From assembly GCA_021108215.1 (NCBI GenBank), contig JAIORK010000009.1, positions 1 through 35,974 of the forward strand: a stretch of 35,974 bases of DNA, read 5' to 3'. Position 1 is the first letter of the stretch. Every line of letters starts with the position of its first letter. This document shows, piece after piece, positions 3,001-22,558 of the stretch. The notes beneath the pieces are model-generated. The model worked only from the letters and a program-made list of their open reading frames with translations. It was not told where the DNA came from and did no database searches. Position numbers and translations under genes: made by a program. The stretch is from a bacterium (GTDB lineage: Bacteria > Oederibacteriota > JAAXVQ01 > JAUVAV01).

Positions 3001-3310
3001 TCGTTCCCAACTCATTGACCGCCTCGGTATGCTCCGTGATACCATGGAATTCGCTGGATTGAATCGTCGTCTCAGTATGCAAAGATCCTTTCAGGCCGTA
3101 CGTATTGTCCGATACTGATTTATGTGCATTGCCCACACCCTCGCCATACCAAGTCTGAGTACGACCTAATTCAGTTTTGGCATCCGTATACTCAGTAATA
3201 CCATGATACTCGCTGGAGGTAATTTCGGTTTTGGTGCTGCGGGCGCCTTTCAAACCGTAAAAATTCTCGGTCTCTGATTGAATGGCATTTCCAATACCAT
3301 CTTGATATTT
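1..3310 (-). repeat. Tandem array of 159-bp (53-aa) units in giant gene A
   Basis: A Tyr-Trp landmark (TAC/ATA followed by CCA on the plus strand) recurs with its T at 126, 285, 444, 603 and so on to 3147, and in a degenerate form at 3306. That is 21 landmarks spaced exactly 159 bases apart with no insertion or deletion. One translated unit (286 down to 128) reads in pieces YVEGVGNAARSVSDNVYGLG, GAKHTETEITSSQFHGITEY and TDAVNELGRTQTW. Invariant elements are SVSDNxYGL, HTET, FHGITEYTDA and LGRTQTW. Units differ mainly by short swapped blocks, for example the YVEGVGN/YQDGVGN and GGAKH/TGSKH variants. The array continues past the left edge. Each unit should add about four short beta strands (inference). 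Confidence 0.95.
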
Positions 3311-6300
3311 GGTTTTGGTAATACCCAGGCCGTTTTTCGCTAAAGTTTCTTGTGTGATGCCATTATGCTTGCTGGCGGTAATTTCCGTTGCTGTTTCAAG
3401 CGCGCCTTTAAGACCATAAATATTTTCCGACTTACTTCTGACGGCAATTCCATAAGGACCATCGGATTGGGTATCAAAAAAAGTCTCCGTCACCCCTAAC
3501 TCATTGGTAGCTTTGGAATACCGCTGCAAACCATGGCGGACATCCATATCCACTTCGGTTACAGTATAAAGTGCACCTTTCAAACCAAAATTATTCATTG
3601 AGGTATTCACCGACTCCAAGCCTGTCTTGGGATCAAACCCCGAGCTCTCAGTTGTTCCATACGCACTCTTTGAAACCCGGTATGTGGTAATCCCGGTATC
3701 GGCATCAAATTGGGATTGAGTCACTGTCTCGCGCGAAGCGTACAAGCCAACCTTGCCGTGACGAATGGTCTCAATCGCATCGCCATGGATGTCATAGGCG
3801 CTTTCTGTTTTTCCCAAGTCATCTTCCGTGGTATTGCTCTGAATACGGCCGAATTCATCGTAAGCATAGTTATTGCTGACTTTATAGCGACCGTCAAGCA
3901 ACCCGTAATTGTCATTTTGTTCTGAATACTGAACCAACGAATCCTTATCAAATTCTTTTTTCATTGTTGTCAAAAGATTTTTACTCATAGAGGTCGTCAT
4001 AAATCCATTGCCATCATAATCATTGACCGTCAGCGTATTGCGGCTGTATTCAACACCATATTGATCGTAGCGAACATTCTGGGTAGCCAGACCGTCAATA
4101 TTAAACTCGGTCATGGTAACCCCCTTCAAATCCGTCTCCTTGCTGCTGGTCAAATATCCGCTGCCGTTATACAAGTTAACCGTCCATTGATCCCGCGCAT
4201 GTCCGTAGGTATTGACACGATGTGAAATTGCCACCAGTTCATCAATATTATAAAAATTTTCTGTCGTGCCATTGGCGTCCTCGGAACGGCTAAAGGTCAT
4301 ATAGGCATTGTTGTCGTATTCGTAGGTCGTATGTTCCGTCTTCGGAAATCCAAATTTCTTTTCTTTAGTGGTTTCCCGCATCAGGCCGTCTTTATCAAAC
4401 TTGTTGTGGTCCGTATAGCGATCTGTATCTGTAATGCTGCTAACCATTTCGCCATCATCATAAGTATATGACGTGGTCTTTTTCTTAGGAAACCCATGAA
4501 TATCCACCCGGACACTTTCTTGCGTCAAGCCATCAGCATCAAAAGAATTACGTGTTTGACCACGCTCATCCAGTTGAACACTGCTTTCAACATCTCCGCC
4601 CGCATCATAAAAATTATAGGTCCAGTGCTCACGAGGAAAACCGTGGTAATTAATGCGATGAACCTTGACCGGAAGTTCATTCTCATCATAGTAGGTAATG
4701 GTTTTACCTTTGACATCATAACTCACCGAAACCGAAAGCATCCCGTCTTTGTAGGTCCGCTCTTCCTCGGTTTTACGGGGATAACCAATCTCGTTTTCAC
4801 GCACAATTTTTTTAGGATCACCGTCTTTATTAAAGGTGGTTACCGTCTTGCCCTTGTCATCCGTCAACAAAGACTGAGCAATTTTACCTTTGGCGTATTC
4901 ATTCACCGTAAATTTTGTCCGGCCCCATTGATCCGTCAGAAAGGTTTCAATCGGCTGTCCGGAGCCATTGTATTTAGTCTCAGTAACCCCGCTCGGACCT
5001 TCCTCTTTACTCGTAATCATATGCTCGCCGGCATACTGATACTTGGTGACAATCACTTTTCCATTGTACTTGGTATAAGTTGTTTTCTCTGGTTGGTCCG
5101 AGGTTGCATCCCGGTTCACCGAAACCTTAATCCCAAACGGCCCCTGGGTATAGCTGGCGCGTTTCCCGTTGGACGTAATACCATAGGTCGTGATTTCAAC
5201 CACACCGCTGTTTTTAATCATCACCTTACGTTCTGCCAATTTGGTATCTTCATTATAATTCGTCAGTGTTCTACTTTTTCTATCCTGACTTACGCCGGAA
5301 ACCAGACGATTGGCATCATCATACGTATAGTTTGTAACCGAATCCTCATTTTTCGTCCGAATGCGGTTACCTTTGGCATCATAAGTGTTCTGGGTTTGAT
5401 TACCGTATTGATCGCTCTCTATCAGCACGTTACCATTATCATCATACTTTTTCGTTACTACTGTAGAATAAACCTGGCCGCCGAATTTATAGGTGATAAT
5501 CTCTGAAGAAAAAACCAAATTACCCTTCTCGTCAACCACGTTGGTAATCTTGGTCTCGCTATTATCGCTTTTGGTACCGACAACTTTTCCGGTTTCATCA
5601 TAAATTGTTAATTTTTCTGTCGGCTGGGTCCCGTCCTTGGGTTCGGTTTTCTCATTGCGGGCAATAATTCTGCCTTCGGCATTGGTTTCATATGTATAGG
5701 TATGACGGCCGCCGGCATTTTCCATCTCAATGACGCGTCCTTGGTCGTCATACTTCTTCGTGGTGATATCCTCAATCATCCCATCAGCCGTGGGCATCAT
5801 TTTAATCTCTTTTTTCTCTGTCAAAACACCCTTTGTGTTCACAACATTTTCAAAGGTAGTCTTGATGCCATTTCGGGTCTCTTCAACCATTTGTCCATTT
5901 TCATATTTCTTTGTAACAACCTTCCCGGCAGAATCACGTTCTACCACGCCGACTTTCTCGCCATCCTCATTGTATTGATTCTCGATATCGGTCCGGATAT
6001 TGTTGCCGTCAATTTTGGCAACCACTTCACCATTTTTAGGATCAAGAATATTTGTGACCGTTTTGTTGGTCGCAAGATCGGTTTCCACATAACTGACTGT
6101 TTTTCCATCCTCATTTTTAATATAATTAGAGAAAATTTTACTGCCCTGCGAGTCCGTCGCCTGAACCGCATTGCCATCAGAATCGAACAGTTTGGTAACC
6201 ACGCCGGCTGCCGAACGCTTAACCATTTTTTGCAATTTCCCGGTCGCTGATTTGTAGTACTTAGTACGCGATATCACCGTGCCGTTGGGATCCAGTTCCT

Positions 6301-6649
6301 CCGTCGGCATGCCGTCTTCATACAGCGTTACTTTGCCGTAGGGATCAACCGCTTTGGTGAGCTGGCCCTTCTCATTATACTGTCTGACTTCGCCGGTCAT
6401 CAACGTAATCGTAATTTCCGACTCGCCGCTCACATCCATCACCGAGGTGCTGCGAACGTTCTTTCCCTGATCTTTTAACTGTTTCATGATCTTGGGAAGA
6501 ACTTTTTCCTCCACCACTCCGGCATTGGACAGGGATACCCCTATAAATAATAATAGAGTACCCAAGAGTGCGAGCGTCCCCAGCCAATTGATCCTGCCAA
6601 AGACTAAACTCGAAGAATTCATTTTTTGATACGCATGAATGGAAGCCAT
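1..6649 (-). CDS. Giant secreted YD/RHS-like repeat protein A (3' end outside window)
   Basis: The reading frame is open from the ATG at 6649-6647 to the left edge, giving 2,216 residues with no stop in the window. The start is fixed by an AAGGAGG ribosome binding site 7 bases upstream. The N-terminus has a charged stretch, then a hydrophobic core (about residues 23-41) and a probable type I signal cleavage after SNA at 41-43, with no lipobox Cys. Residues about 50-600 hold irregular YD-like repeats (YDxxG, YNxxG). Residues about 620-1000 hold 48-52-residue units beginning GYP/GFP. From about residue 1060 to the edge runs an exact 53-residue tandem array. The protein is collinear with the giant gene at 8915-22558, sharing for example DPKTGLE/DPITGLE, GPYGIAVRS and a DQPEK/EQPEK segment, so the two are paralogues. 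YD/RHS proteins are typically large exported beta-rich shells or adhesins. The exact role here is unknown, and no enzymatic or toxin domain is visible in this part. Confidence 0.9.
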   Translation of the reverse strand, partial: MASIHAYQKMNSSSLVFGRINWLGTLALLGTLLLFIGVSLSNAGVVEEKVLPKIMKQLKDQGKNVRSTSVMDVSGESEITITLMTGEVRQYNEKGQLTKAVDPYGKVTLYEDGMPTEELDPNGTVISRTKYYKSATGKLQKMVKRSAAGVVTKLFDSDGNAVQATDSQGSKIFSNYIKNEDGKTVSYVETDLATNKTVTNILDPKNGEVVAKIDGNNIRTDIENQYNEDGEKVGVVERDSAGKVVTKKYENGQMVEETRNGIKTTFENVVNTKGVLTEKKEIKMMPTADGMIEDITTKKYDDQGRVIEMENAGGRHTYTYETNAEGRIIARNEKTEPKDGTQPTEKLTIYDETGKVVGTKSDNSETKITNVVDEKGNLVFSSEIITYKFGGQVYSTVVTKKYDDNGNVLIESDQYGNQTQNTYDAKGNRIRTKNEDSVTNYTYDDANRLVSGVSQDRKSRTLTNYNEDTKLAERKVMIKNSGVVEITTYGITSNGKRASYTQGPFGIKVSVNRDATSDQPEKTTYTKYNGKVIVTKYQYAGEHMITSKEEGPSGVTETKYNGSGQPIETFLTDQWGRTKFTVNEYAKGKIAQSLLTDDKGKTVTTFNKDGDPKKIVRENEIGYPRKTEEERTYKDGMLSVSVSYDVKGKTITYYDENELPVKVHRINYHGFPREHWTYNFYDAGGDVESSVQLDERGQTRNSFDADGLTQESVRVDIHGFPKKKTTSYTYDDGEMVSSITDTDRYTDHNKFDKDGLMRETTKEKKFGFPKTEHTTYEYDNNAYMTFSRSEDANGTTENFYNIDELVAISHRVNTYGHARDQWTVNLYNGSGYLTSSKETDLKGVTMTEFNIDGLATQNVRYDQYGVEYSRNTLTVNDYDGNGFMTTSMSKNLLTTMKKEFDKDSLVQYSEQNDNYGLLDGRYKVSNNYAYDEFGRIQSNTTEDDLGKTESAYDIHGDAIETIRHGKVGLYASRETVTQSQFDADTGITTYRVSKSAYGTTESSGFDPKTGLESVNTSMNNFGLKGALYTVTEVDMDVRHGLQRYSKATNELGVTETFFDTQSDGPYGIAVRSKSENIYGLKGALETATEITASKHNGITQETLAKNGLGITKTKYQDGIGNAIQSETENFYGLKGARSTKTEITSSEYHGITEYTDAKTELGRTQTWYGEGVGNAHKSVSDNTYGLKGSLHTETTIQSSEFHGITEHTEAVNELGTTQTWYGEGVGNAVKSVSDNNYGLGGSKHTETTIQSSDFHGITEYTQAINELGTTQTWYTEGVGNATRSITDNVYGLGGAKHTETTIQSSDFHGITEYTDAVNELGRTQTWYAEGVGNSVKSVSDNIFGLKGALHTETTIQSSEFHGITEQTDAVNELGRTQTWYQEGVGNSVKSISDNVFGLKASKHTETTIQSSEFHGISEYTDAVNEMGRTQTWYAEGVGNAVKSVSDNVFGLEGAKHTETTIQSSEFHGITEYTDAANELGRTQTWYVEGIGNAMKSVSDNTYGLGGSKHTETTIQSSDFHGITEYTDATNELGRTQTWYQENVGNATKSVSDNIYGLKGALHTETTIQSSDYHGITEYTDATNELGRTQTWYQENVGNATKSVSDNIYGLKGALHTETTIQSSEFHGITEYTDAVNELGRTQTWYGEGVGNATKSVSDNVFGLKGSLHTETTIQSSEFHGVNEYTVGINELGQTQTWYQDGVGNATRSVSDNVFGLGGSKHTETTIQSSDFHGITEYTDAVNELGRTQTWYQEGIGNSTKSVSDNVYGLKGALHTETTIQSSDFHGITEYTDATNELGRTQTWYQEGIGNSTKSVSDNIYGLKGSLHTETEIQSSEFHGISEYTDAVNDLGRTQTWYQDGVGNATKSVSDNNYGLTGSKHTETTIQSSEFHGVNEYTDAVNELGRTQTWYQDGVGNATKSVSDNVFGLEGAKHTETTIQSSEFHGVTEYTDAVNELGRTQTWYVDGVGNAARSVSDNVFGLGGSKHTETTIQSSDFHGITEYTDAVNELGRTQTWYVDGVGNATKSVSDNIYGLTGSLHTETTIQSSDFHGITEYTDATNQLGRTQTWYQDGVGNATKSVSDNNYGLTGSKHTETEITSSQFHGITEYTDAVNDLGRTQTWYVEGVGNAARSVSDNVYGLGGAKHTETEITSSQFHGITEYTDAVNELGRTQTWYVDGIGNAMNSVSDNIYGLGGAKHTETAIQSSQFHGITEYTD
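3650..4790 (-). repeat. 48-52-aa double-YD units in giant gene A
   Basis: Between the irregular YD-like region and the 53-residue array the protein is built of units starting with a G[YF]P[RK] turn. Each then has a YD..G half and a second half ending in a DGL/DEL turn and an aromatic-Gly boundary. The visible starts GYPRK (near 4785), GFPRE, GFPKK and GFPKT are followed by the more derived GHARD and GVEYSR units. Order and content match residues about 620-1000 of the paralogue at 8915-22558. Confidence 0.75.
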
Positions 6650-8914: not shown

Positions 8915-11900
8915 TTATTGCTGCAATTGGAATCGCCGGTGATCCATTTTCATTCGCTCCATGCGCGGATCCGCGAGTCCGTTTTCCTGCGAACTAAAAT
9001 CCAGCGCCTGCTCGGCAAATGAATCTTTCTTGGCAATTTTTTCCAGCTTCTCCCGTTTTTTTCCACGGGCAATCAATCTGCCGGTTTGATCGTATTTCAT
9101 ATAATGCTTGTCACCATTTCGCGCCTCAATTTCTTGGTGAATCTCCGAAATTTTTCCGGATTTATTTTTTGAATAGTGATAACGTGTGGTTGACCCGTCC
9201 AATTGGCGGCGACACGTCAGCATGCCGGAACGGTAATCCCTTTCTTCGAGAATACTGCCCTGCTCTCCATAGAGCACAACCGTATAGACATCTGTTCCCT
9301 GCCCCGTATAGTGATACGTGCGGGTTTGATCTCCTTGCGCCAACAAGATCAATCGCCCTTGGGCGTCATACTCTGATTGTGCGAGTCCATCCTCGGAACG
9401 CTGCGCCACATAGACTTTAGAAATCTCTCCTTTTGCCGTGTATTCATAATCGTAAACTTTATTCACGCCGCCTTCCGTCTCGGAAAGCAGCCGTCCTTCC
9501 AGATCATAGTGCTTGATGCAAGCGGTACTTCCTCCGCCCGAGGTCTTTTCCGTCACACCTGAAGTCTCATAAACAAATTCGTGACGCACACCTCTCCTAT
9601 CCACCACATCAAGCACACGTCCTTTTTCATCACGTTTGACATTTTTCTCAGACTGCAACTCCTTGGCCATGGTCAAGGCCTTTTTGGTTTCCTGGGGTAT
9701 CGCCTCGCCTGTCAGTGCCACCTTTAAATCTTCAAGCATGCGGCCGTTGTTCAATAAAAATTCGGTCACCTGACTCAGCCAGGATGCTTTGTATTCTTTG
9801 CCGAATATTGATTGCATGACATTGATGAGCGGTTGCATATTGGATGCTTCCAGTTCATCCAATATGCTTTCCCGGATTTTCGTAAGATCCATCTGCCGAA
9901 GTATTGCCAACATCGCTTTCCGTACCTCCCGCACACCCACACTGTTAAGAGATATTTTCCGCTTAACCGTTTTTTCCTTTTCAGGAGCATCCATTTGGGT
10001 CGATACCACCGCTCCTTTTACTGCTTGTTCATCAGCAAGCTCAGGTATTGCCGCAGACATTTTTAATGCCTTGCTGCCGACAGAAGCGGGTTCCGCCTTG
10101 TCCGCCGGAATCAAGCTGCCGCCGCCCAGCACCACACCTTTGGGATTCCGGTTGAAGGTATGCTGCCGCCGGTTGGTTTGCACACTTGCCGCCTGAACAC
10201 CGATTGACTTGTCTTTGCCGCCAATCGGACCCGCAACCACCGTGTTGGTATTCAGCGTAAGGGTTTCACTAAAAAACTGGTTGTCTTTGGTCCCGGTTTT
10301 TACCCAGGCAAATCCCAAATACTCCCGGCTATAGGCAAACTGTAAATAGCGATACTCTGTGTGCTGTTGGCCGGACTCAGGATCTGTCACAAGTCGGGTC
10401 TCAATATCATATGAATAACCACAATGCCCGACAAACTGAGGATTGTTGTAATTATCACTGTTGTAACTGTCATATTTTTGCGGGCTCTGCCGGCTCCACT
10501 CGCTGGTCATGACCGTTTCTTTCTTCCCCTCAGTCAAAACCTCCTTGGTGAACAGTGTCTGGGTAAACCGGATATTATTGAACCGGGATAAGGTTGATCC
10601 GTCGGTTTGAATATCGATTTCAACATCAGCAATCATATCCAAATCACTCTGGGTTAAGGCTTCCGCCATTTTTTCACCAAGTGTACTGTGCCCGCCGGAG
10701 GTTTCTTTTTCAGTATATTTTTGTTTGAGCAGCTGCTTAATAAAATCAATGGCAGTTTGGCCGTTTAGCGCAACCGTATTGTCGGCATTGGATTGCGAAA
10801 CATCCGCGCCCAGGGATTTTAATTGGCTGCCGGTGTAATAAAACCCGGATGTATCATAAGAAACTTCACCGACCCACTGATTGCCCGCTGTATCTGTAAA
10901 CCGTTCAATGGCGCCGGTCCAATACGATTTCACACTGGTGGTCGGTGAATAGGTGTGCACCACCCCCCGGCTATCTGTCCAGGTTTGGAGGTTCCAGTAG
11001 GCATCCAAGGTCATGGTTGTGCCATCCACTGCCACGCCGTCAATTTTTTCCATACGGTCTCCGCTGTACGTATAGACAAACGTGCCCATCCCGCCCTGGG
11101 TACGATCCCTTTTATGCGTACCGGGATTCCAAACCGTCATACCCTTGTCATCCTGACTGGATGCAATATCATTCATCCCGACAAACGTATATAATGTGGT
11201 TTGTCCGTCTTCGCGCAACCCTGCGGCACTGGTTACAAACTGCCCGTCATTGTAATAGGTGATGGTCTCATCCCAGCTATTCATGTTGCTGAGAACTTGT
11301 TTGTTTAAAATACCGGTCTCAGTATAATATTCCTGACCATGGCCGTTGTGCAATCCCCACAGATCCGTATAAGTAATATCGGCTGCCGTATGATAGCGCC
11401 CTTCCGGTGTCGATGTATACACCCACAAGGTTGTCGCACCGCCATAACTGGTACGATACCGCCTTACAGTATCCGCCTGATGGTAATCGCCATTGAGAAC
11501 CCATAATTCCGTTCCCTGGTTATCGGTCACCGTTGCGGAATAAGGGCCATCCGGTGTCACTGCATAAACAATCAGCATCTCCGTGACATACAATGCCTGA
11601 TGAAAGATAACTCTAACAATTGACGGAAAGTGTTCCTTGGCGCCATCTTTACCATACTCGGACAGCTCAAGCTGCTCCACTGTCTTGATGTCACCGTACC
11701 GGACCACTTTGCTGTTCAACTCTTTGTTATGATAATTATAATAAGTCCACTGTTCCTGCTCAGCAACCGGCTCATCATAGGCCGCCGTAGCAGATTTCTT
11801 TTCCACACCATCTTGGTCGTAATAAACAATTTTTTCATCAAACTTACAATTTTTAACAGGTACCCGGCGTTCTCGTTTCATCAAACCGGTTAAACTGTAT

Positions 11901-14900
11901 GTTTGATAATAGCTTCTCCATTTCCGCCATTTCTTCTTTTCATTCTTTCCGGAACCGCTTGAATACGCCTTATGGGTATATCCATAATAAGGACGCCCCT
12001 TGTAATCATTCCATTTCACGGTTACAAAAGAATGACATGTCCACCCGACCCTGCTCGGGCTGCGCGAGGTTATTTTGGAACCGTCATCATCAAAGGACGC
12101 GGACCAGTATGGAATCCCGGTGTCTGGATTATTGTAGTTCTCAAAACGGGATTTAGTGTATTGCGAAAAAATGGACTTATTCTTCTTAGGACTCCAGCTA
12201 GCGCCTTTGACTGCCATTCCATTCCCGTCAAACGATGTGCGTGTGTGTCCCCGGCCATTACATTTATATGTGCGGGAGCTACTATTGAGTCCGGTGGATT
12301 TATTCACATTATAGGTCGCCCATGTTCTCTGGCTCCCGTTTTCCCCAAAATCACGTGTGCTGTATGAATGGGTCACAAATCCATTTTTATCTGCATAATT
12401 TCGATTAGATCCAATTAGCGTGGTTGATAATGTCTCTGACGGAATACCGCTCCAGTGTAACGGCCCCGTAGTAACATGCGAAATACGGTCCCCGGTTCCT
12501 GCCGCGTAATTATTATACACATCTTTTTGATAACTCGCCGGCAACCCGTGTTCATTGTAATATTGCCAGATCTTGGTCATCGGGTTTTCAGAATATGTTT
12601 TCCGCTTCATTCCCGTCGCGCCGTCCCATTCAGCAGTATAAATATCCGTCTTTCTTCCGTAACGGGGGCCCAAATAACTTCTGGATATCGTTTTTGTCTC
12701 GACACCCTTTTCATTAAAAAAAGTTTCGCTCCTGCCCAGTCCGTTTCTGGACTTGGTCCTTTCTTTTATACCGGAATAGGCATTTGTCTGAATATAATAG
12801 GTCACGTTGCTCCGCCCTTTGTATGCGCCGTAATGATTTTCAGTCAGCATCTCGACGGCAAAACCATTCCGGTTATGCCTGGTTGTCGTTGTTGTCACGA
12901 GACTTCTCTTATCCTTGCGGGAATAAGATTTGGCAACGGTTGTTTTGTTTAATCCTGTGTTTTTATTGACGGCAATGGATGTCACTGTCATATATGCCAA
13001 TCCAACATTGGAATAAGTGGTGCTGGTGGCGGCAAAGCCATTGTCAGTATAGTCAGTCTGGGTTATTCCCATGCCGTTGATGGCTGTGGAACTGGACAGC
13101 AGACCGTTGTCGCGCGTTTGAAAGGTATTCTTGGTCACCTGAACACATCCCAAATTATACTGCCGGTTTAACAAAACAGTGGACTCTGTTTGGGCGCCGG
13201 TTTCAGAATGGTACCGGGTCCATGTTTGGGATAAATCAGAGTAACTAAAGGTGCTTTTATTCAACCCGGTGTTACGGTCGGCATCCACAAGGGTGTTGCT
13301 CTGGCGGCCCCCTTTCGGGCCATAGTAACTTTCCGTAACTTGACGCTCAACCACCCCATAGTGCCGGTCAAAATAGGAGGTTGTTCTCCCCATACGATTG
13401 GTGGCAACCGTCACTAAATTTTGTCCGGTGATCCTGTCTGCGGTGACACGGGTTTCTGTTTTCCGCGCATATTCCGCACCAAATTTATTTTCACTGATGG
13501 TTTTCGTCGTAATACCGTCCCGGTCATAATACATCTTGTTCTTTCCGGTTTCGGTAAACGCGACAGAACTTAAATTAATGCCCGTACGCAAATTAACCCG
13601 GTAGTAATTTGTCACTTCACGGGAGTCCTTGGCACCGTATAGGTTATTTGCCACACTCTTGGTCATAGTCCCGTAATTTGCATCATAAAACGACGTTGTC
13701 GTGCCGTACTGTGATGTTGCGATGGTCTTCGTGCTCATCCCGGAAAAATCATCCGCAAAAATTTGGGTGCTGGCATTGCGGCTGTAGAGAATGCCGAAAT
13801 TCCCTGCTGTGTCGGACTGAAATGCCGTGCCGGTGCCAAGATGATCATACTGGGTTGTGGTTGTTCCGAAGGCGCTTTTGGCAACCGTGAGGATGCTCAG
13901 ACCGGTTGTTTTATCGGCCGTGATGTCCGTCTCCGAACTCCGGCTGGCAAGGGTGCCATAATAATTTTTCGAGTATGAGCGCATGGCAGTGCCGTAGGTC
14001 TGGTCATACCACGTGGTTGTCTCGCTAAGACTGTTCGTCGCCAGCGTCTCAATATTAATGCCGGTTTTTACATTTGCTTTCATCCGGGTATGGGTCATCC
14101 GGCTGCCCCAAACACCATAGCGGCTTTCGGACCTGGAGCTGGTGGGGACACCGTGCTCGCGATCTTCATAATAAGTTGTTGTGCTGCCTTGACCGTTGGT
14201 GGAAACGATTTTTGTATTCATCCCGGTGTTCAAATCGGTTTCAATCCGCGTATGGGTGTCCCGGGTGGACAGTAGTCCGTATTTATTTCTGTCCCGGCTT
14301 TCCAGCGGTACGCCGGTATCCCATTCATCAAACGTGGTGACCGTGGTCGTGTAATCATTGTCCGTAACGGTTGTTTTATTCAAGCCGGTCCACGTATTCG
14401 AGAGAATATCCGTCAGCGTCGTTCGCGTTGACAGCAGACCGTAATGCGAGGTGGTCTCAGACTGCTGCGGCAGCCCGGTGGCCTGATCGTCAAAATAAGT
14501 CACGGTTGTATTCAATTCATTCACTGCGGTTGTCCGGCAATTGAGTCCGGTGCTGCGGTCAGCCTCAATGGCGGTTTGGGTTTCCCGTGCACCGATCAAG
14601 CCGAACTTGGCATAGCTGATGGAAGAAACCGCCACACCGCTGTCCCCGCCATCATGCCGGGTAATGATTATGTTGTTATCGTTTTCCGCCACAACCACTT
14701 CATTGAGTCCGGTGGCAATGTTCGCTGTAATCGCCGACCGGGTTGCCCGTGCGCCATAAATTCCAAAATTATTTTCCGCCAGGGACGCAACCGCCGTACC
14801 GGTCTCCTCATGATCGTAATATGTCGTGGAAGTGCCGGCGTCATTCACGGTCAGCGTACTGCGGTTCAATCCATTCCAGGCATTCGTGTCATTCACCGAA

Positions 14901-17900
14901 ACCGTGCTCCGCGCTGCTCCGATGCCGTAAACATTTTCAGCATGGCTGTATTGAACCAGACCGGTCTTGGCATCATCATAGTGACTGGTGACTGTGCTTA
15001 ACCCGTTGATGGCAACCGTTGTTTTGTTCAAACCCGTGTAGGTATTGGTTTGGATGTATGTCCTGTTTTCCCGGCTGTCCAAAAGCCCAAATTTATTTTT
15101 TCCATGGGAATACACCGGCAAACCGGTGTCCTGCGAATCAAAGAGCGTGGTCGTGGTGCTGTATTGATTGTCCGCAATTGTTTTCTTCGTCAATCCGTTC
15201 CAACCATCCGCTTCAATGATCGTGGCGGTCTCGCGCGTATACAGGATGCCGAAATGATTCCAGGCTTCCGTCGATTGTGATAATCCGGTTTTTTCATCAT
15301 CATACTTTGTCACGGTGGTGCCATAGGCATTCATGGCGGTGGTCCGGCAATTAAGCCCGGTCCAGGCATTGCCCTGAATCAGAGTATCGGTTTCAGCTGT
15401 GGCGCCCAGTCCAAAATTATTGCTGGTACGCGAAAACTGCGGCAATCCGGTATACGTATCATCAAAAAAAGTAACCGATGTACTGTAATCGGAAATCGCC
15501 GTTGTAACTTTATTAAGACCATTTTCCCTGTTGGCCACGATGGTTGTCTCCACGGTCCGGCTTGAAAAAGCGCCGAAATTACTTTCCGTGTGCGACCGCA
15601 AAGCCGACCCTGTCCGCGCGTCATCATAATAGGTCCAGGTGGTTCCTGAGCTGTTTTGCGCCTTGGTCCTGCGGTTCAATCCGTTTTTCAGGTTGGCGGT
15701 GATAACCGTTTCCGTGACACGTGCCGCCCCAATCCCAAATTGATTCCTGCTGCGGGAAAATGTGGCAACTCCCGTATGCTCATGATCATATTTCGTCTCT
15801 GTCTCACCATACGCATTCACTGCAATCGTCCTAATATTCAACCCGGTCCAAAGATCCGTTTCAATTTGAGTTTCCGTTGATTCCGCCGCACCCACGCCAT
15901 AGTTATTAATCGTTTGTGACAACCGGGCAACACCGGTTTCCTCATCATCATAATAGGTTGTCACCATGCTGTTCCGATTCACCGCCCGGGTTTCCTTATT
16001 CAACCCGTTCCAGCGGTCGGCAGTAATCGTGGAAATCGTTTCCCGGGCGCCCTCCAGCCCAAAGTGATTTGTGGCCATTGCTGTCGTGGCCGTACCGCTA
16101 TGCTCATCATCATAGAGTGTAACCGTCGTACTGTTCTCATTGGATACGACGGTCTGCGCATTCAATCCGGTCCAGGTATTGGCAGTGATATTTGAAGTGG
16201 TAATTTTAGCGCCCAGCAGACCGTACGCATTGACTGCCACTGAATATTCGGCACATCCATAAACCTCGTCATCATAATAGGTCGTGGTAATGCCGTAATG
16301 AGTGCTGGCGATTGTACTGGTATTCAATCCATTCCAATCATTGGCATTGATCTCGGTGTCGGATAGTCGTGTGGAAAACAGCCCGAAGTTATTTTCCGCA
16401 CGGGACATTTTTGCCACGCCGGTTTTTTCCGAATCAAAAAGTGTCGTCACCGTTCCATAAGCATTTTCAGCGCGTGTCATTTTATTCAAGCCGTTCCATT
16501 CACCGGCATCAATTTTCGTCCTCGTCATCTGATTGGCACCCAGCCCAAAATTACTCCGGCTTTGCGAAGAAAGCGCCACGCCCGTGTTGTCCGCATCAAA
16601 TTGGGTGGTGGTCTCGCTATGCTTGTTTTTCGAGACTGTTTCCCGGTTTAAACCATTAAACAAATCGGCCGTGATGACTGTGGCGGTTTCACGGGTGGCG
16701 CCGATTCCAAAATTATTTTCCGCCAAAGTCAGTTGCGCAACACCGGTTTTCTCCGCATCATAAATCGTATAGGTCTTCCCATACTCATTCATCGCGATCG
16801 TCATTTTATTTAATCCGTTAAATTCATCGGCAATAATACTCGTGTCGGTTGTGCGTGATGCCTTAAGACCGAAGTTATTCCACGCCCGCGACCATAGCGC
16901 CATACCGGTTGCTTGATCATCATAGCGGGTGTAGGTTTTTCCATAAGCATTGGTCGCTTCCGTACTGATATTTAAACCGCTGTGCCGGTTTGCTTCGATT
17001 TTTGTTTCCGTCGTGCGCGTTGCAAACAGCCCAAATTTGTTTTCCGCAAGTGAATACAGCGCCACGCCGGATTGCTTATCATCATAGGTCGTGAGCGTGA
17101 TGGAATAGGCATTCACGGCTTTGGTGGTACGGTTAAGACCATTCCAGGTATTGGCGCCAATTACGGTTTCCGTCTCACGTGCCGCATATAAACCATAATT
17201 CGTTTTGACCGTGGTTTTTTCCGCCACCCCGGTCAAGGCTTGATCATACTCGGTTGTGGTGATGCCGTAGGCATTCACTGCGATTGTTTCAATATTCAAC
17301 CCATTCCAGGCGCCGGCAACGATGTCCGTATGGGTTTCCGCGTTCGCGCCCAATCCGAATACCGCCGAGGTATCGGATTCAGTGGCCACGCCGCTGACAC
17401 GATCATCGTATGTTGTAATGGTCTTTGAACTTTCCGTGATTGCAACCGTCTTCCGATTCAATCCGTTCCATGTATTGGCCGTGATATCCGTATGGCTTTC
17501 CGCGTTCGCACCCAGGCCAAATCGATTAAAGGTATCCGATGAAAACGCACATCCGGTGGCGTGACTGTCATACTGGGTAACGGTCACGGCATAGTGACTT
17601 CGGGCTACGGTCATTTCATTCAATCCATTCCAGAGATTGGTTCGGATTTTCGAATGCGATTCAAGCGTCGCGCCCAGTCCGAAATTATTCCAAGTATCGG
17701 ATTCCAATGCCACACCGCTTTTTTGATCATCATACCGGGTAAGCGTCCGGTTATACGCGCTGACAGCCTCGGTTTTTTGATTCAAACCGTTTTTCGTGTT
17801 TGCCGTGATCGCGGTTTTGACTTTCCGGGCGGATGCCAATCCAAAGTTATTCAACGCCTCGGACATGACGGAGACACCGGTATCTTCTCCGTCAAAATAC

Positions 17901-20900
17901 GTCAGTGTTTTACCATAGGCACTCACCGCCTCGGTTTGCAGGTTGAGCCCATTCCACGCGCTGGCGGTGATTTTGGTCATGGTTTTCCGGGTCGCGCCTA
18001 AACCAAAATAATTATTCGCCGTCGACCGAAGTGCCTTTCCGGTCTGTTCATGGTCATACACGGTCACTGTGCGGCCATAGTGGTTGTCCGCCACGGTTTG
18101 CCGGTTTAATCCATTCCATGTATCTGCCGTAACTTTTGTTCGCGTCACCTGGGCCGCACCCAGACCGTACACATTGGTCGTAAGCGAGGACAGCGCCACG
18201 CCGCTGCCGGCATGATCGTACAGCGTCACTGTCTCGCTATGATCATTTTTCGCCACTGTTTTTTTATTCAGGCCATTATAATGATCCGCCAGGATTTGTG
18301 TCCGGGTCAGTCGCGTCGCATGCAGACCGTAATTATTCCATGCGCGTGATTGGGTCGCAACGCCTGTTTGCAGATGGTCATAGCGGGTCCATGTGCTGCC
18401 ATAGGCATTGACGGCAACCGTCTCCTCGTTCAATCCATTCCAACTATCGGCTTTAATCCGGGTATATGTTTCCCGGCTGGCAAAGAGACCGTAAAAATTC
18501 TCCGCCAGCGACTCCACCGCCACACCGGTTTTCACATGATCAAACCGTGTCGTGGTTTTCGAGTAATCATTCCGCGCAACTGTATATTGGTTCAAACCAT
18601 TCCAACGGTTCGTGTACATTTCCGTGACTGTAATACGAGTCGCCCCGAGGCCATAGTGATTGCGCGTGATCGAGGTTCGTGCCAGACCTGTATCCTGGCT
18701 GTCAAAAAAGGTCACGGCTTCACTGTAGTTATTGACCGCAATCGTTTTCTCATTTAAACCATTGCCCGTGTTTGCGAAAATAAGGGTTTGCGTACTTCGG
18801 GAAGAAAAAAGTCCGTACAAATTTTCAGTATTGGATGTCAAAGCCACGCCATATTTCCGGGCATCATACACGGTCTCGGTTTTACCGTATGCCGTGGTTG
18901 CCGTTGTATTGCGATTCAAGCCGTTCCATTGGTTGGCCACAATCTCTGTATATGTTTCCTGATTGGCTCCCAACCCAAAATTATTCCATGACATTGAATC
19001 CGTCGACACCCCGGTATGCGCACTCTCATAATTCGTATGCGTTGTGCTGAAGGCGTTTTTGGCCACCGTCTCACGATTCAAACCATTCCATAAATTTGTT
19101 TTTATGTCGGTGGCGGTTTTGCGCGTGGCATCAATGCCGAAATAATTGGCGGTGTATGATTTAACCGCCACACCATGCCGCCCCTGGCTCAACGCATCAT
19201 ATTCCGTCAACGTTGTGCTGTAACGGTTCTCTGCTTTGGTGCGCCGGTTCAATCCGGTATGGATGTCCGCTTCAATGGCGGTGACGGTATCACGGGTATA
19301 GGTCAAGCCGAATTTATTCTGCGTTCGTGAACGGACCGCAATCCCGTAAGGCCCATTGTTGATTTTCGCATCATAGTCCGTTGTTGTTACGGCATAAGCA
19401 TTTTCTGCGCGGCTGCTGCGGGACAATCCATGGCGGGGATCCATTTCCAAAAAAGTTTCCGTCAGGCAGGTGGCTCTTAAACCAAATGTATTCTTGGATA
19501 ATTGGCGTTTTTCCAAACCCGTGATGGGATCAAACTCCATGCTCTGGGTGATGCCGCCCTCATTAAATGAATTTCGTGCCGTGGTCATCCCGGTATCTGC
19601 ATGGAACCCCGACCAAGTATACGTTTTCCGTGAAGCGCCAATGCCGAGGGAGGCAACGCGCAGCGTTTCAACGGCATCTCCGTGAATATCATAGCTACTG
19701 AACGTCGTGCCCAGGTCATCAAGGGTACGGTTGCTTTGAATACGTCCCAACTCATTGTAAATATAATTGTCGGAAATTTTATGGCGCCCGTCAATGACTC
19801 CAAAGTTATCATGTTGGTCCACAAGTTGCACCAAACTGTCACGATCAAAGTTTTTTTCCGAGGTTGAAAGCAAATTTTTACTGAGGGATTTGATCAAAAA
19901 ACCCTGTTCATCATAGTGGTTGACGGTAAAAGTTTCTCTCGCATATTCAAGTCCGAATACATCATACCGAAAGTTGCAGGTTGCCAAATTATCCCGGTCA
20001 TATTCCGTCAGGGTAACGCCGCGGAGATCAAACTCTTTGCTAATGCGCAAAAAACCCTGAGCATCATATTCATTGATCGTCCATTGTTCACGCGCATGAC
20101 CGAAACGGTTTTCCCGGTAAGAACACGCGACCAATTCATCAATGTCATAATAATTTTGGGTAAAACCATTGGCATCATTTCCCAAACTATAGGTCATGTA
20201 CCCATTATAATCGTATTCATAGCGAGTGGCTTCCAGGCGGGGATAGCCAAATATCTTTTTCCTCAGACTTTTCCGCATCAGTCCGTCTACATCAAATGTA
20301 TTGTGGGCTTCGCCGCGTTTATCTTTGGTCAGACTGCTGATCAATTCACCTTTTTTATAGAGATAGGTGGTTGTTTTTCTCTTCGGAAAACCAAAACGAT
20401 CCAGACGCACCGTGAGACCGGTCAAACCATCTTCATCCATTTCGTTCCGGGTTATTCCACGATTATCGCGTTGAATCGTCCGAATGAGATCCCCGCCATC
20501 ATCATACTGATGAAACACGCGGTTTTTCCGGGGAAACCCGTGCTCATTGACCCGATGAATACTGTCGGTTTTTTCATGCTCATTATAATAAGTATAACTA
20601 CAGCCCTTAACATCCGTGGAAATACTTTCCGTAAGCATTCCGTTTTTATAAATCCGCGTTTCCTCCGAACGCCGCGGAAAACCGATACTGTTTATCCGGG
20701 TAATCTTGTAGGGGTCCTCGTACTTATTGAGCAGCGTTATTGTTTTTCCTTTGTAATCTTCCTGAACCGATTGTTTCATCCTGCCATTGCCATACTGATA
20801 AATCGTGGTGCTGCGCACACCCCATTGATTAACAGTAACCGCCGAACTGGGTTTACCCTTTAAATTATAGACAATATCCGTGATGCCTCCCAGGGATGAT

Positions 20901-22558
20901 TCATGACTGGAAATCAATTGATCACCGATATATGAGTAATCGGTGATGATCTGCCTGCCGTTAAATTTGATCAGGATCACTTTTTCCGGCTGCTCGCTTT
21001 CGGCATCCCGATCAATGGTATAACGAATTGCAAACGCTTCCGTGGTGACTGAGTAGCGTTTCCCTTCGGGATTGATGCCAAAGACCGTGAATTCGATCAC
21101 GCCGCTGTTGGTAATCCTGATTTTGTTTTTGGCTTTTTTTGTTTTAACATCATACACGGTGAGTGTCCAACTCCGGTAGTCCGTGGTCTCACTGGCAATC
21201 ATCCGATGGCTGCCATCATAAAAATACTTGGTGGTTTCCAGCTCAGTCTCGCTCTTAATTTTATTGCCCACAGAATCATACGCGTACCGCGTCTGCAGGC
21301 CGTTGCCGTCACGCTTGGAAACCACTTGTCCGGTTTCATTGAATTCTTTGCGAATGATATCGGAAAAAGACTGGCCGTTTATCCGAATGTCGACAAATTC
21401 CAATGTCGTGACCAGGTTCCCCAGCTCATCAAGAATATGTTTATACTGAATATTTTTATTTTTTTCCTTAATCGCCGTGATCCGGCCGACCGCATCATAC
21501 CGGGTCGTAATATTACGTTGTGCTTTATTTTTATCCTTATATTGAATCACCTCATGCCGCGCCACCACCTGGCCATTCGCGCCGACTTCGTATGAATAAC
21601 TGGAAATACTTGTCTGATCTTCTTTGCGCAAAACACGGCCGACATTATCGTAGTCGCGCACGATTTTTTCAGTCACCATGCCGGTTGCCGAGGGCTGTTG
21701 TTTATACTCAATGCGCTGCTTCATCACCCCGTTCTCATCCGAAATCGTTTCAAATTTAGTCAGTAATCCATTTTTTTCTTCTTCCACCACCTGCCCCTGA
21801 GAAAACCGTTTGATAATCACATTGCCGGCGGAATCCCTCTCAACCGTCTCGGTCTTTTCACCATTCAAATCGAATTTATGCGAAATATCAATCCGGATGC
21901 CGTTATTGTCAATTTTGGTGATTTCATTTCCGGTTTTAGGATCCAGAATAACTTTGTACATTTTATTGTCATTCATGTTTCTTTCAATGAAACTAACCGT
22001 CTTACCCTTGTTATTTTTAACATAATTGCTGTAAGTATGAATACCCTGAGTATTGGATGCCTGAATCACGTTGCCTTTCCGGTCGTAAATCTTGATCTCA
22101 ACACCGGTCAAGCCCTTTTTCACCATCTTTTGAATGTTCCCGGTTTTATCACGAAGGTATTCGTATTCAGCAATGACGGTTCCGCTTGCATTTCGTTCTT
22201 TGACCGGTTGGCCATCCTCGTATTGCGTGATCCGGCCCCGGGCATCCTTGCGCTCGATCATTTGACCGCCGCCATCATACTTTCTAACCTCTTTGTTACC
22301 CAAGACTACCGTAATAATTGTTTCACTGTTTTTTTCCATTGCAGACGAACTGAGGACTTTTTTCCCTTCCGTTTCAAGTTGCTGGAGTATCCTCGGCAAT
22401 ACTTTACTCTGATCAGCTGTGGCGGCAAAAAGACTTGTGCCGCTGCCAAGCAATAACAGTCCCATTATAAAAACCGCCAAAAATCTTTCGGCACCTGAAT
22501 ACAATTGAAATTTTCCGGAAAATTTTCGATCGGTTTTTCGAAGTAGTTTATTTTTCAT
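8915..22558 (-). CDS. Giant secreted YD/RHS-like repeat protein B (4,547 aa, complete)
   Basis: The gene is complete, with a ribosome binding site AAGGTGG 7 bases upstream of the ATG. A long basic n-region and hydrophobic core (residues about 26-40) end at a likely type I cleavage near Ala45, without a lipobox Cys, so the product should be exported but not lipidated. Residues about 52-600 are irregular YD-like repeats. Residues 626-1010 are 48-52-residue double-YD units (GFPRR, GFPRK, GFPKR, GYPRL, GHARE). Residues about 1012-3477 hold about 46 units, 31 of them (1157-2830) exactly 54 residues. About 3480-4190 is a Tyr/Thr/Gly-rich non-periodic stretch, about 4190-4295 a helical segment (LTKIRESILDELEASNMQPL), about 4305-4505 classical YD-like repeats again, then a basic tail. 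No hyperconserved RHS core, autoprotease site or C-terminal toxin is recognisable. It is paralogous and collinear with gene A. A surface adhesin, sheath or shell role is likely, but the function is unknown. Confidence 0.93.
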   Translation of the reverse strand: MKNKLLRKTDRKFSGKFQLYSGAERFLAVFIMGLLLLGSGTSLFAATADQSKVLPRILQQLETEGKKVLSSSAMEKNSETIITVVLGNKEVRKYDGGGQMIERKDARGRITQYEDGQPVKERNASGTVIAEYEYLRDKTGNIQKMVKKGLTGVEIKIYDRKGNVIQASNTQGIHTYSNYVKNNKGKTVSFIERNMNDNKMYKVILDPKTGNEITKIDNNGIRIDISHKFDLNGEKTETVERDSAGNVIIKRFSQGQVVEEEKNGLLTKFETISDENGVMKQRIEYKQQPSATGMVTEKIVRDYDNVGRVLRKEDQTSISSYSYEVGANGQVVARHEVIQYKDKNKAQRNITTRYDAVGRITAIKEKNKNIQYKHILDELGNLVTTLEFVDIRINGQSFSDIIRKEFNETGQVVSKRDGNGLQTRYAYDSVGNKIKSETELETTKYFYDGSHRMIASETTDYRSWTLTVYDVKTKKAKNKIRITNSGVIEFTVFGINPEGKRYSVTTEAFAIRYTIDRDAESEQPEKVILIKFNGRQIITDYSYIGDQLISSHESSLGGITDIVYNLKGKPSSAVTVNQWGVRSTTIYQYGNGRMKQSVQEDYKGKTITLLNKYEDPYKITRINSIGFPRRSEETRIYKNGMLTESISTDVKGCSYTYYNEHEKTDSIHRVNEHGFPRKNRVFHQYDDGGDLIRTIQRDNRGITRNEMDEDGLTGLTVRLDRFGFPKRKTTTYLYKKGELISSLTKDKRGEAHNTFDVDGLMRKSLRKKIFGYPRLEATRYEYDYNGYMTYSLGNDANGFTQNYYDIDELVACSYRENRFGHAREQWTINEYDAQGFLRISKEFDLRGVTLTEYDRDNLATCNFRYDVFGLEYARETFTVNHYDEQGFLIKSLSKNLLSTSEKNFDRDSLVQLVDQHDNFGVIDGRHKISDNYIYNELGRIQSNRTLDDLGTTFSSYDIHGDAVETLRVASLGIGASRKTYTWSGFHADTGMTTARNSFNEGGITQSMEFDPITGLEKRQLSKNTFGLRATCLTETFLEMDPRHGLSRSSRAENAYAVTTTDYDAKINNGPYGIAVRSRTQNKFGLTYTRDTVTAIEADIHTGLNRRTKAENRYSTTLTEYDALSQGRHGVAVKSYTANYFGIDATRKTATDIKTNLWNGLNRETVAKNAFSTTHTNYESAHTGVSTDSMSWNNFGLGANQETYTEIVANQWNGLNRNTTATTAYGKTETVYDARKYGVALTSNTENLYGLFSSRSTQTLIFANTGNGLNEKTIAVNNYSEAVTFFDSQDTGLARTSITRNHYGLGATRITVTEMYTNRWNGLNQYTVARNDYSKTTTRFDHVKTGVAVESLAENFYGLFASRETYTRIKADSWNGLNEETVAVNAYGSTWTRYDHLQTGVATQSRAWNNYGLHATRLTRTQILADHYNGLNKKTVAKNDHSETVTLYDHAGSGVALSSLTTNVYGLGAAQVTRTKVTADTWNGLNRQTVADNHYGRTVTVYDHEQTGKALRSTANNYFGLGATRKTMTKITASAWNGLNLQTEAVSAYGKTLTYFDGEDTGVSVMSEALNNFGLASARKVKTAITANTKNGLNQKTEAVSAYNRTLTRYDDQKSGVALESDTWNNFGLGATLESHSKIRTNLWNGLNEMTVARSHYAVTVTQYDSHATGCAFSSDTFNRFGLGANAESHTDITANTWNGLNRKTVAITESSKTITTYDDRVSGVATESDTSAVFGLGANAETHTDIVAGAWNGLNIETIAVNAYGITTTEYDQALTGVAEKTTVKTNYGLYAARETETVIGANTWNGLNRTTKAVNAYSITLTTYDDKQSGVALYSLAENKFGLFATRTTETKIEANRHSGLNISTEATNAYGKTYTRYDDQATGMALWSRAWNNFGLKASRTTDTSIIADEFNGLNKMTIAMNEYGKTYTIYDAEKTGVAQLTLAENNFGIGATRETATVITADLFNGLNRETVSKNKHSETTTQFDADNTGVALSSQSRSNFGLGANQMTRTKIDAGEWNGLNKMTRAENAYGTVTTLFDSEKTGVAKMSRAENNFGLFSTRLSDTEINANDWNGLNTSTIASTHYGITTTYYDDEVYGCAEYSVAVNAYGLLGAKITTSNITANTWTGLNAQTVVSNENSTTVTLYDDEHSGTATTAMATNHFGLEGARETISTITADRWNGLNKETRAVNRNSMVTTYYDDEETGVARLSQTINNYGVGAAESTETQIETDLWTGLNIRTIAVNAYGETETKYDHEHTGVATFSRSRNQFGIGAARVTETVITANLKNGLNRRTKAQNSSGTTWTYYDDARTGSALRSHTESNFGAFSSRTVETTIVANRENGLNKVTTAISDYSTSVTFFDDTYTGLPQFSRTSNNFGLGATAETDTLIQGNAWTGLNCRTTAMNAYGTTVTKYDDEKTGLSQSTEAWNHFGILYTRETATIIEADGWNGLTKKTIADNQYSTTTTLFDSQDTGLPVYSHGKNKFGLLDSRENRTYIQTNTYTGLNKTTVAINGLSTVTSHYDDAKTGLVQYSHAENVYGIGAARSTVSVNDTNAWNGLNRSTLTVNDAGTSTTYYDHEETGTAVASLAENNFGIYGARATRSAITANIATGLNEVVVAENDNNIIITRHDGGDSGVAVSSISYAKFGLIGARETQTAIEADRSTGLNCRTTAVNELNTTVTYFDDQATGLPQQSETTSHYGLLSTRTTLTDILSNTWTGLNKTTVTDNDYTTTVTTFDEWDTGVPLESRDRNKYGLLSTRDTHTRIETDLNTGMNTKIVSTNGQGSTTTYYEDREHGVPTSSRSESRYGVWGSRMTHTRMKANVKTGINIETLATNSLSETTTWYDQTYGTAMRSYSKNYYGTLASRSSETDITADKTTGLSILTVAKSAFGTTTTQYDHLGTGTAFQSDTAGNFGILYSRNASTQIFADDFSGMSTKTIATSQYGTTTSFYDANYGTMTKSVANNLYGAKDSREVTNYYRVNLRTGINLSSVAFTETGKNKMYYDRDGITTKTISENKFGAEYARKTETRVTADRITGQNLVTVATNRMGRTTSYFDRHYGVVERQVTESYYGPKGGRQSNTLVDADRNTGLNKSTFSYSDLSQTWTRYHSETGAQTESTVLLNRQYNLGCVQVTKNTFQTRDNGLLSSSTAINGMGITQTDYTDNGFAATSTTYSNVGLAYMTVTSIAVNKNTGLNKTTVAKSYSRKDKRSLVTTTTTRHNRNGFAVEMLTENHYGAYKGRSNVTYYIQTNAYSGIKERTKSRNGLGRSETFFNEKGVETKTISRSYLGPRYGRKTDIYTAEWDGATGMKRKTYSENPMTKIWQYYNEHGLPASYQKDVYNNYAAGTGDRISHVTTGPLHWSGIPSETLSTTLIGSNRNYADKNGFVTHSYSTRDFGENGSQRTWATYNVNKSTGLNSSSRTYKCNGRGHTRTSFDGNGMAVKGASWSPKKNKSIFSQYTKSRFENYNNPDTGIPYWSASFDDDGSKITSRSPSRVGWTCHSFVTVKWNDYKGRPYYGYTHKAYSSGSGKNEKKKWRKWRSYYQTYSLTGLMKRERRVPVKNCKFDEKIVYYDQDGVEKKSATAAYDEPVAEQEQWTYYNYHNKELNSKVVRYGDIKTVEQLELSEYGKDGAKEHFPSIVRVIFHQALYVTEMLIVYAVTPDGPYSATVTDNQGTELWVLNGDYHQADTVRRYRTSYGGATTLWVYTSTPEGRYHTAADITYTDLWGLHNGHGQEYYTETGILNKQVLSNMNSWDETITYYNDGQFVTSAAGLREDGQTTLYTFVGMNDIASSQDDKGMTVWNPGTHKRDRTQGGMGTFVYTYSGDRMEKIDGVAVDGTTMTLDAYWNLQTWTDSRGVVHTYSPTTSVKSYWTGAIERFTDTAGNQWVGEVSYDTSGFYYTGSQLKSLGADVSQSNADNTVALNGQTAIDFIKQLLKQKYTEKETSGGHSTLGEKMAEALTQSDLDMIADVEIDIQTDGSTLSRFNNIRFTQTLFTKEVLTEGKKETVMTSEWSRQSPQKYDSYNSDNYNNPQFVGHCGYSYDIETRLVTDPESGQQHTEYRYLQFAYSREYLGFAWVKTGTKDNQFFSETLTLNTNTVVAGPIGGKDKSIGVQAASVQTNRRQHTFNRNPKGVVLGGGSLIPADKAEPASVGSKALKMSAAIPELADEQAVKGAVVSTQMDAPEKEKTVKRKISLNSVGVREVRKAMLAILRQMDLTKIRESILDELEASNMQPLINVMQSIFGKEYKASWLSQVTEFLLNNGRMLEDLKVALTGEAIPQETKKALTMAKELQSEKNVKRDEKGRVLDVVDRRGVRHEFVYETSGVTEKTSGGGSTACIKHYDLEGRLLSETEGGVNKVYDYEYTAKGEISKVYVAQRSEDGLAQSEYDAQGRLILLAQGDQTRTYHYTGQGTDVYTVVLYGEQGSILEERDYRSGMLTCRRQLDGSTTRYHYSKNKSGKISEIHQEIEARNGDKHYMKYDQTGRLIARGKKREKLEKIAKKDSFAEQALDFSSQENGLADPRMERMKMDHRRFQLQQ
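9044..9646 (-). repeat. C-terminal YD-like repeats of giant protein B
   Basis: Residues about 4305-4505 show classic YD-type periodicity: DEKGRVLDVVDRRG, HYDLEGRLLSETEGG, YDAQGRLILLAQGD, YGEQGSILEERDYRSG and YDQTGRLIARGKK. This resembles ordinary RHS/YD repeats more than the central array does. The array is therefore bracketed by YD-like segments at both ends. Confidence 0.7.
12128..19525 (-). repeat. About 46-unit 54-aa repeat array of giant protein B
   Basis: Units share the pattern W-[NT]-G-L-N-x3-T-x-A-x-N-x-Y-x-x-T-x-T-x-Y-D-x4-[TS]-G-V-A-x3-S-x3-N-x-[FY]-G-L-x-A-x-R-x-T-x-T. From Trp1157 to residue 2830 (14069-19090) there are 31 consecutive units of exactly 54 residues (162 bases), although unit sequences are strongly diverged. 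Before this block two units are longer; after it lengths drift (50-60 residues) and the motif decays by residue about 3480. The conserved Trp/Tyr, Asn-Gly and Thr alternation suggests several short beta strands per unit (inference). Confidence 0.93.
19529..20683 (-). repeat. 48-52-aa double-YD units of giant protein B
   Basis: Residues 626-1010 are units of 48, 49, 48, 49, 49, 51 and 52 residues. Each begins at a Gly after an aromatic (GFP, GFP, GFP, GYP, GHA, GLE, GVI) and contains a YD..G or YK.G turn and a second turn (DVDGL, DRDNL, DRDSL). Units grow longer towards the C-terminal side and lead directly into the 54-residue array, sharing the same phase. Confidence 0.8.
20789..22405 (-). 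repeat. N-terminal irregular YD-like region of giant protein B
   Basis: Residues about 52-590 contain irregular YD-like repeats such as KYDGGGQMIERKDARGRI, YDNVGRVLRKED, RYDAVGRITAIKE, AYDSVGNKIKSE and FYDGSHRMIASE, characteristic of the RHS/YD superfamily. The region is matched segment by segment by the N-terminus of giant protein A. Confidence 0.8.

What the first reader, a model, noticed from the sequence alone, without database searches (positions are those of the whole stretch)
14069..19090. 31 consecutive units of exactly 54 residues with strongly diverged sequence
Between residues 1157 and 2830 every unit is 54 residues long, yet units share only a skeleton (WNGLN, T-x-A-x-N, T-x-T-x-YD, TGVA, N-x-FGL). 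The array is old and not homogenised, but indels have been purged. This is the signature of a rigid solenoid or shell with strict geometry.
Basis: partly seen in the sequence, partly recalled or inferred. Interest (0 to 1): 0.65.

Follow-up and report, generated by a model that had tools for sequence, protein, structure and literature searches.

The report
Giant secreted RHS-like 54-residue repeat protein
An uncultured bacterium encodes a 4,547-residue, probably secreted protein built from 31 worn but length-perfect copies of a double beta-hairpin related to the RHS/teneurin "YD" repeat, and close relatives keep the array length almost to the residue even though the repeat sequences themselves have been replaced, which suggests that the physical length of the structure matters.

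Summary
On the minus strand, residues 1157-2830 of a 4,547-aa ORF (window 8915-22558) are 31 consecutive 54-aa units that align with no gap at 43% mean identity; synonymous sites are near saturation, and Tandem Repeats Finder sees no array in the DNA. AlphaFold2 of eight units (pLDDT 84.5) gives four beta-strands, i.e. two hairpins, per unit. Its best 31 Foldseek hits in the PDB are all RHS, teneurin or TcB/TcC shells, but TM-scores are only 0.16-0.32, so the global shape is open. The N-terminal flank passes the Pfam RHS_repeat and NCBIfam YD_repeat cut-offs. No RHS-associated core, toxin or delivery domain was found. The family occurs in 7 of 8 genomes of one order of an uncultured phylum (Goldiibacteriota/FCPU426) and in none of 37 other genomes of the phylum searched. 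Unit length is uniform within an array but differs between arrays (53, 54, 63 aa). Three complete genes keep the anchor-to-anchor length at 2138, 2139 and 2137 aa, although at an orthologous locus the array sequence was replaced (26% identity inside, about 57% in the flanks); a fourth measures 2217. Best reading: an exported giant YD-strip surface fibre, tube or shell whose length is selected.

The parts
8915..22558 (-). whole ORF P0001, 4547 aa, giant YD/RHS-like protein
   Evidence: single open frame, no stop inside
22421..22558 (-). N-terminal signal-peptide-like segment (hydrophobic FLAVFIMGLLLLGSGTSLFA, then ATA); homologous segment WLGTLALLGTLLLF.GVSLS.A in paralogs
   Evidence: read from the translations; no signal-peptide predictor was run; no lipobox cysteine
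19430..22411 (-). N-terminal flank, irregular YD/RHS repeats of about 48-52 aa (res 50-1043)
   Evidence: Pfam RHS_repeat in 8 of 8 members, 41 bits vs cut-off 22 for this one; TIGR01643 33.8 vs 15.8; profile hits PDB 7q97 at 1.4e-17
21257..21343 (-). best PF05593 RHS_repeat match
   Evidence: 27.9 bits, over cut-off
19091..19429 (-). two transitional units of 56-57 aa (res 1044-1156)
14069..19090 (-). 31 units of exactly 54 aa, four beta-strands each
   Evidence: fold
13271..14068 (-). five decaying units of 52-54 aa (res 2831-3096)
11567..13270 (-). irregular YD-like flank (res 3097-3664), starting at the anchor TGLNK
10679..11566 (-). most conserved C-terminal domain (profile A1), beta-rich, no PDB sequence match; in 7 of 8 genomes of the order
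9917..10210 (-). predicted disordered linker (res 4117-4214), variable in length in relatives
   Evidence: pLDDT below 50; alignment
9659..9934 (-). small helical bundle
   Evidence: helices predicted, low to moderate confidence
9062..9646 (-). C-terminal YD-like beta hairpins
   Evidence: TIGR01643 11.2 bits, sub-threshold
8918..9052 (-). C-terminal tail with D-x-R-[MI] motif, found in this genome only at the ends of the five giant YD genes
2..6649 (-). paralog P0003, cut by the contig end; 20 units of exactly 53 aa, homogenised (80% identity)

Best explanation
P0001 is a Sec-exported (inferred) giant member of the RHS/YD beta-hairpin world. Nearly the whole chain is a strip of antiparallel hairpins, and the central 31-unit array is a regularised form of it: each 54-aa unit is two YD-type hairpins (about 26 + 28 aa). 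The strip forms an elongated fibre, tube or shell on or outside the cell (inferred) and acts as a structural or adhesive surface element rather than a toxin carrier. Indels are removed by selection because a shift in one hairpin would break the stacking of its neighbours. Arrays arise by amplifying one founder unit and then diverge, while selection holds the array near a fixed length.
For: Shown: AF2 gives four strands per unit, pLDDT 84.5. Foldseek top 31 are all RHS, teneurin or TcB/TcC. Profile-profile match of the array to the N-terminal RHS flank, 95.6%, E 1e-8. N-flank hits solved RHS structures at 1.4e-17 and passes Pfam and NCBIfam cut-offs. Zero indels in 31 units against frequent indels in residues 3300-3680 of the same protein. 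Anchor distance HGDA to TGLN(K/Q): 2138 (this gene), 2139 (C1), 2137 (G004), 2217 (G006). C1, G004 and G006 are syntenic: IspF upstream of the giant in C1 and G006, MurA downstream in all three, genes recognised from their N-termini. C1 is sister to G004+G003 in the N-flank tree (support 1.0), yet the C1 and G004 arrays are only 26% alike; all 34 G004 units have their nearest neighbour in their own array, and C1 units instead fall with this gene's and G006's units. C-terminal tail found only in these giants.
Against: No tool showed export, location or function. The array itself scores no RHS match in Pfam. TM-scores to RHS shells are low, and the C-terminal model does no better (TM about 0.1). 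G006 has 35 unit intervals instead of 38, so unit number is not absolute. Equal length in three genes could be frozen ancestry with in-place gene conversion rather than selection.
Confidence: 0.6

Rival explanations
1. It is a conventional RHS polymorphic toxin or TcB/C-like cage, only larger: the strip closes into a cocoon around a cleaved C-terminal toxin.
For: N-flank homology to RhsA and relatives; local fold match to RHS/TcB cages.
Against: No RHS-associated core (TIGR03696), toxin, PAAR or VgrG domain detected. The C-terminus is conserved in all members compared, whereas polymorphic toxins have variable tips. Low TM-scores.
Confidence: 0.12
2. The equal array lengths are historical: one ancestral 38-interval array, kept because diverged units no longer recombine, with unit style spread by gene conversion in place; length itself is not selected. 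(This rival concerns the length claim only and is compatible with the fold and location part of the best explanation.)
For: Flanks and array of this gene and C1 align almost without gaps; arrays at 43-51% identity offer little substrate for unequal crossing-over; G006 differs (2217).
Against: No detectable position-by-position correspondence between arrays (excess identity 0.011 and 0.006, z 1.6 and 1.3), so units have been replaced or fully diverged; G004 replaced the style completely but kept 2137 aa.
Confidence: 0.35
3. The repeats are a variable adhesin or decoy whose copy number is unimportant.
For: Giant ORFs in the phylum Omnitrophota have been proposed to be adhesins (PMC10066038).
Against: Array length agrees to within 2 aa in three genes; no DNA-level tandem repeat that could slip.
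Confidence: 0.1

Closest known systems
RHS/YD-repeat proteins (PF05593, TIGR01643): T6SS RhsA/Tse5/Tre23, Tc toxin BC cages
   Same: hairpin-strip fold (local), YD-like motifs, N-flank sequence homology
   Different: several times longer; regular 54-aa double-hairpin unit repeated 31 times; no RHS core, autoprotease, toxin or delivery domain found; fixed rather than variable C-terminus; closure not shown
Teneurins and teneurin-like protein (9ifo)
   Same: YD-shell fold match; presumed non-toxin extracellular role
   Different: no NHL, FN-plug or other teneurin domains detected; bacterial; regular array
OspA single-layer beta-sheet
   Same: weak fold hit (rank 32): stacked antiparallel hairpins in one layer
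   Different: no sequence similarity found; far shorter
Giant ORFs of Omnitrophota (PMC10066038)
   Same: giant ORFs in an uncultured phylum, few annotated domains
   Different: other phylum; those are over 20 kb, this is 13.6 kb

Membership tests
RHS/YD-repeat protein | sequence match to RHS_repeat or YD_repeat above curated cut-off somewhere in the protein | tested here: met
   27.9 and 41.2 bits vs 22; 33.8 vs 15.8; whole-protein scan only 19.3 bits
RHS/YD-repeat protein | the 31-unit array itself matches the repeat family | tested here: not met
   no RHS match for 18 array segments; only a profile-profile link to the RHS flank, E 1e-8
RHS/YD-repeat protein | antiparallel hairpin strip (local fold) | tested here: met
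RHS/YD-repeat protein | strip closes into a hollow cocoon | tested here: inconclusive
   TM 0.16-0.32, pTM 0.60; coordinates not viewable
RHS polymorphic toxin | RHS-associated core with C-terminal autoproteolysis | tested here: not met
   no TIGR03696 match at E 0.1 or, for the last 948 aa, at E 0.5
RHS polymorphic toxin | variable C-terminal toxin domain | tested here: not met
   C-terminal tail conserved; no Pfam domain in the last 948 aa
RHS polymorphic toxin | delivery by T6SS, Tc or similar | not testable with these tools
   no PAAR or VgrG domain in P0001; signal-peptide-like start read from sequence instead
Teneurin | NHL, FN-plug, TTR and YD shell in order | tested here: not met
   no such Pfam domains in the whole-protein scan of P0001; only weak TTR_TEN1-4 hits to 2 array segments, E 0.046

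The most novel reading that the evidence does not exclude
A new class of fixed-length extracellular beta-spiral: selection counts the hairpins. The sequence of the whole array can be swapped by new founder amplification while the length is restored almost to the residue, and unit residues carry a superhelical period (4.26 units, 17 strands, in two arrays) because one face of the spiral lies against a partner or surface.
Probability: 0.2. Interest if true: 0.75.

Novelty: new variant of a known kind. Interest (0 to 1): 0.55.

Why it matters
It extends the RHS/YD fold from closed toxin cages of about 76 strands (RhsA, PMC8765631) to strips with 124 predicted strands in the 31-unit array alone, apparently without a toxin. 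The contrast between replaced sequence and conserved length offers a natural test of whether repeat number can be selected as a physical dimension, a question usually obscured by recombination. It also gives a handle on giant proteins of uncultured bacteria, most of which lack annotated domains.

Tried and rejected
A first fold alignment with overlapping windows (A2) was useless because MAFFT aligned identical parts; it was replaced by non-overlapping eight-unit rows (A3). A single-protein genome-contig scan found nothing; the profile scan worked. PDB sequence searches with the array and with the C-terminal domain gave no hit. Pfam hits such as NHase_beta_N, Dynein_light and DUF6778, and the NCBIfam FosG hit, were rejected as repeat-composition artefacts (unrelated families; no stretch passing on its own where shown). 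Position-by-position orthology of units was tested and not found. The unit count of P0003 and its relatives could not be measured because contigs break inside the arrays. An initial guess of Omnitrophota was dropped once named relatives proved to be Goldiibacteriota and FCPU426.

Full report
OBSERVATION. The finding lies on the minus strand in ORF 8915-22558 (P0001, 4547 aa). Residues 1157-2830 are 31 units of exactly 54 aa. MAFFT aligns them with no gap, mean identity is 43% and synonymous sites are near saturation (41% same codon against 37% expected). Lag-54 autocorrelation stands far above background. The units score 62-88 bits each against their own profile, with spacing exactly 54 throughout. 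Tandem Repeats Finder sees nothing at DNA level, so the array is not expected to mislead the assembler.

FOLD. An alignment of non-overlapping eight-unit stretches from this gene, its paralogs and relatives (A3) gave an AlphaFold2 model with pLDDT 84.5 and pTM 0.60: four strands, two hairpins, per unit. Foldseek against the PDB returned RHS effectors, teneurins and TcB/TcC as its 31 best hits (best E 5.7e-12), then OspA, a single-layer sheet. TM-scores are 0.16-0.32, so the local strip is RHS-like but the global curvature is not established. The last 948 residues (pLDDT 71.5) also contain RHS-like sheet, a disordered linker and a helical bundle.

SEQUENCE HOMOLOGY. The flank before the array is an RHS/YD region: Pfam RHS_repeat in 8 of 8 family members, NCBIfam YD_repeat above cut-off, and PDB RHS proteins at E 1.4e-17. 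The array itself matches no RHS model, but its profile aligns with the flank profile at E 1e-8. No RHS-associated core, toxin or delivery domain was detected.

FAMILY. The genome (G000, 3.56 Mb, 67 contigs; the window is the whole of contig C9) holds five loci with the family's C-terminal tail: this gene, C1 (4821 aa), C14, C36 and a distant C49 gene. P0003 in this window and the C31 fragment are N-terminal halves cut by contig ends, probably belonging with C14 and C36 (inference). The conserved C-terminal domain occurs in 7 of 8 genomes of the order and in none of 37 other genomes of the phylum. Named relatives are Ca. Goldiibacteriota DeMMO3_7 and FCPU426 MAGs. The window's own name was not disclosed.

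ARRAY EVOLUTION. Unit length is constant inside most arrays but differs between arrays: 54 here, in C1 (one 53) and in G004; 53 in P0003; 63 in G006, where extra residues sit mainly in the loop after the YD motif. G003 mixes 54 and 55. C1, G004 and G006 are orthologs by neighbourhood: IspF upstream in C1 and G006, MurA downstream in all three; these genes were recognised from their N-terminal sequences. The N-flank tree joins C1 with G004+G003 (support 1.0), and the C1 and G004 N-flanks are 57% identical, yet the arrays are 26% identical. G004 units group together, with the G003 units, while C1 units fall with this gene and G006. Within-array identities are 43, 51, 47, 68 and 80% for this gene, C1, G004, G006 and P0003. 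No unit-by-unit correspondence is detectable between arrays (z 0.8-1.6). Nevertheless the distance from the anchor HGDA to the anchor TGLN(K/Q) is 2138, 2139 and 2137 aa in this gene, C1 and G004; G006 has 2217 with three fewer, longer units (read by hand from the sequences printed).

SUPERPERIOD. Fourier analysis of residues across units gives a shared peak at 4.26 units (17 strands) in C1 and P0003 (global permutation P 0.008 and 0.001), 2.58 units in G004 (P 0.0015), 5.06 here (P 0.049) and none in G006. In this gene, C1 and P0003 synonymous codons show no such period, so it is not an echo of block duplication; in G004 they do (z 3.7), so block duplication may explain that one. The frequencies in the test were chosen from the same data. 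This is suggestive only.

MECHANISM. Shown: double-hairpin units in a confident model, RHS ancestry of the flank, absence of indels, length agreement. Inferred: export by the N-terminal hydrophobic segment, a continuous strip, a role as surface fibre, tube or shell. A toxin cage is less likely because the C-terminus is conserved and no toxin, core or delivery domain was found. The gene neighbourhood (two apolipoprotein N-acyltransferase genes, both above the TIGR00546 cut-off; and a second giant-protein family) suggests a cell-envelope context without proving it.

CAVEATS. These are draft MAGs; only four complete genes were available for the length comparison; the fold alignment had 18 rows; model coordinates could not be inspected.

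Noticed in passing
window 2-6649 (-), P0003: Paralog with 20 or more units of exactly 53 aa, homogenised at 80% identity, cut by the contig end; a strong contrast to the worn 54-aa array of the next YD gene in the same window.
   Followed up: partly
window 24657-35972 (-), P0004: C-terminal 3771 aa of a second giant protein; its first 970 aa are 51% identical to a stretch (residues 4036-5024) of a 5026-aa ORF fragment next to the C36 YD giant. Contains a Walker-like AMGGGKS and DEFH; no Pfam or PDB family identified.
   Followed up: partly
window 7203-8897 (+) and 22831-24486 (-): Two apolipoprotein N-acyltransferase genes flank the giant gene, both above the TIGR00546 cut-off; the second is diverged but keeps the Glu-Lys-Cys triad by alignment.
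   Followed up: partly
L016; G000:C49: A 7247-aa frame with an RHS_repeat hit, followed by a 3196-aa distant relative ending in the same D-x-R tail.
   Followed up: no
arrays of C1 (L012), P0003, G004 (L033): Non-integer superperiods of residues across units (4.26, 4.26 and 2.58 units), not seen at synonymous sites except in G004.
   Followed up: partly
L034 (G006): 63-aa unit repeated about 30 times with no length change, a second unit-length solution at an orthologous locus.
   Followed up: yes
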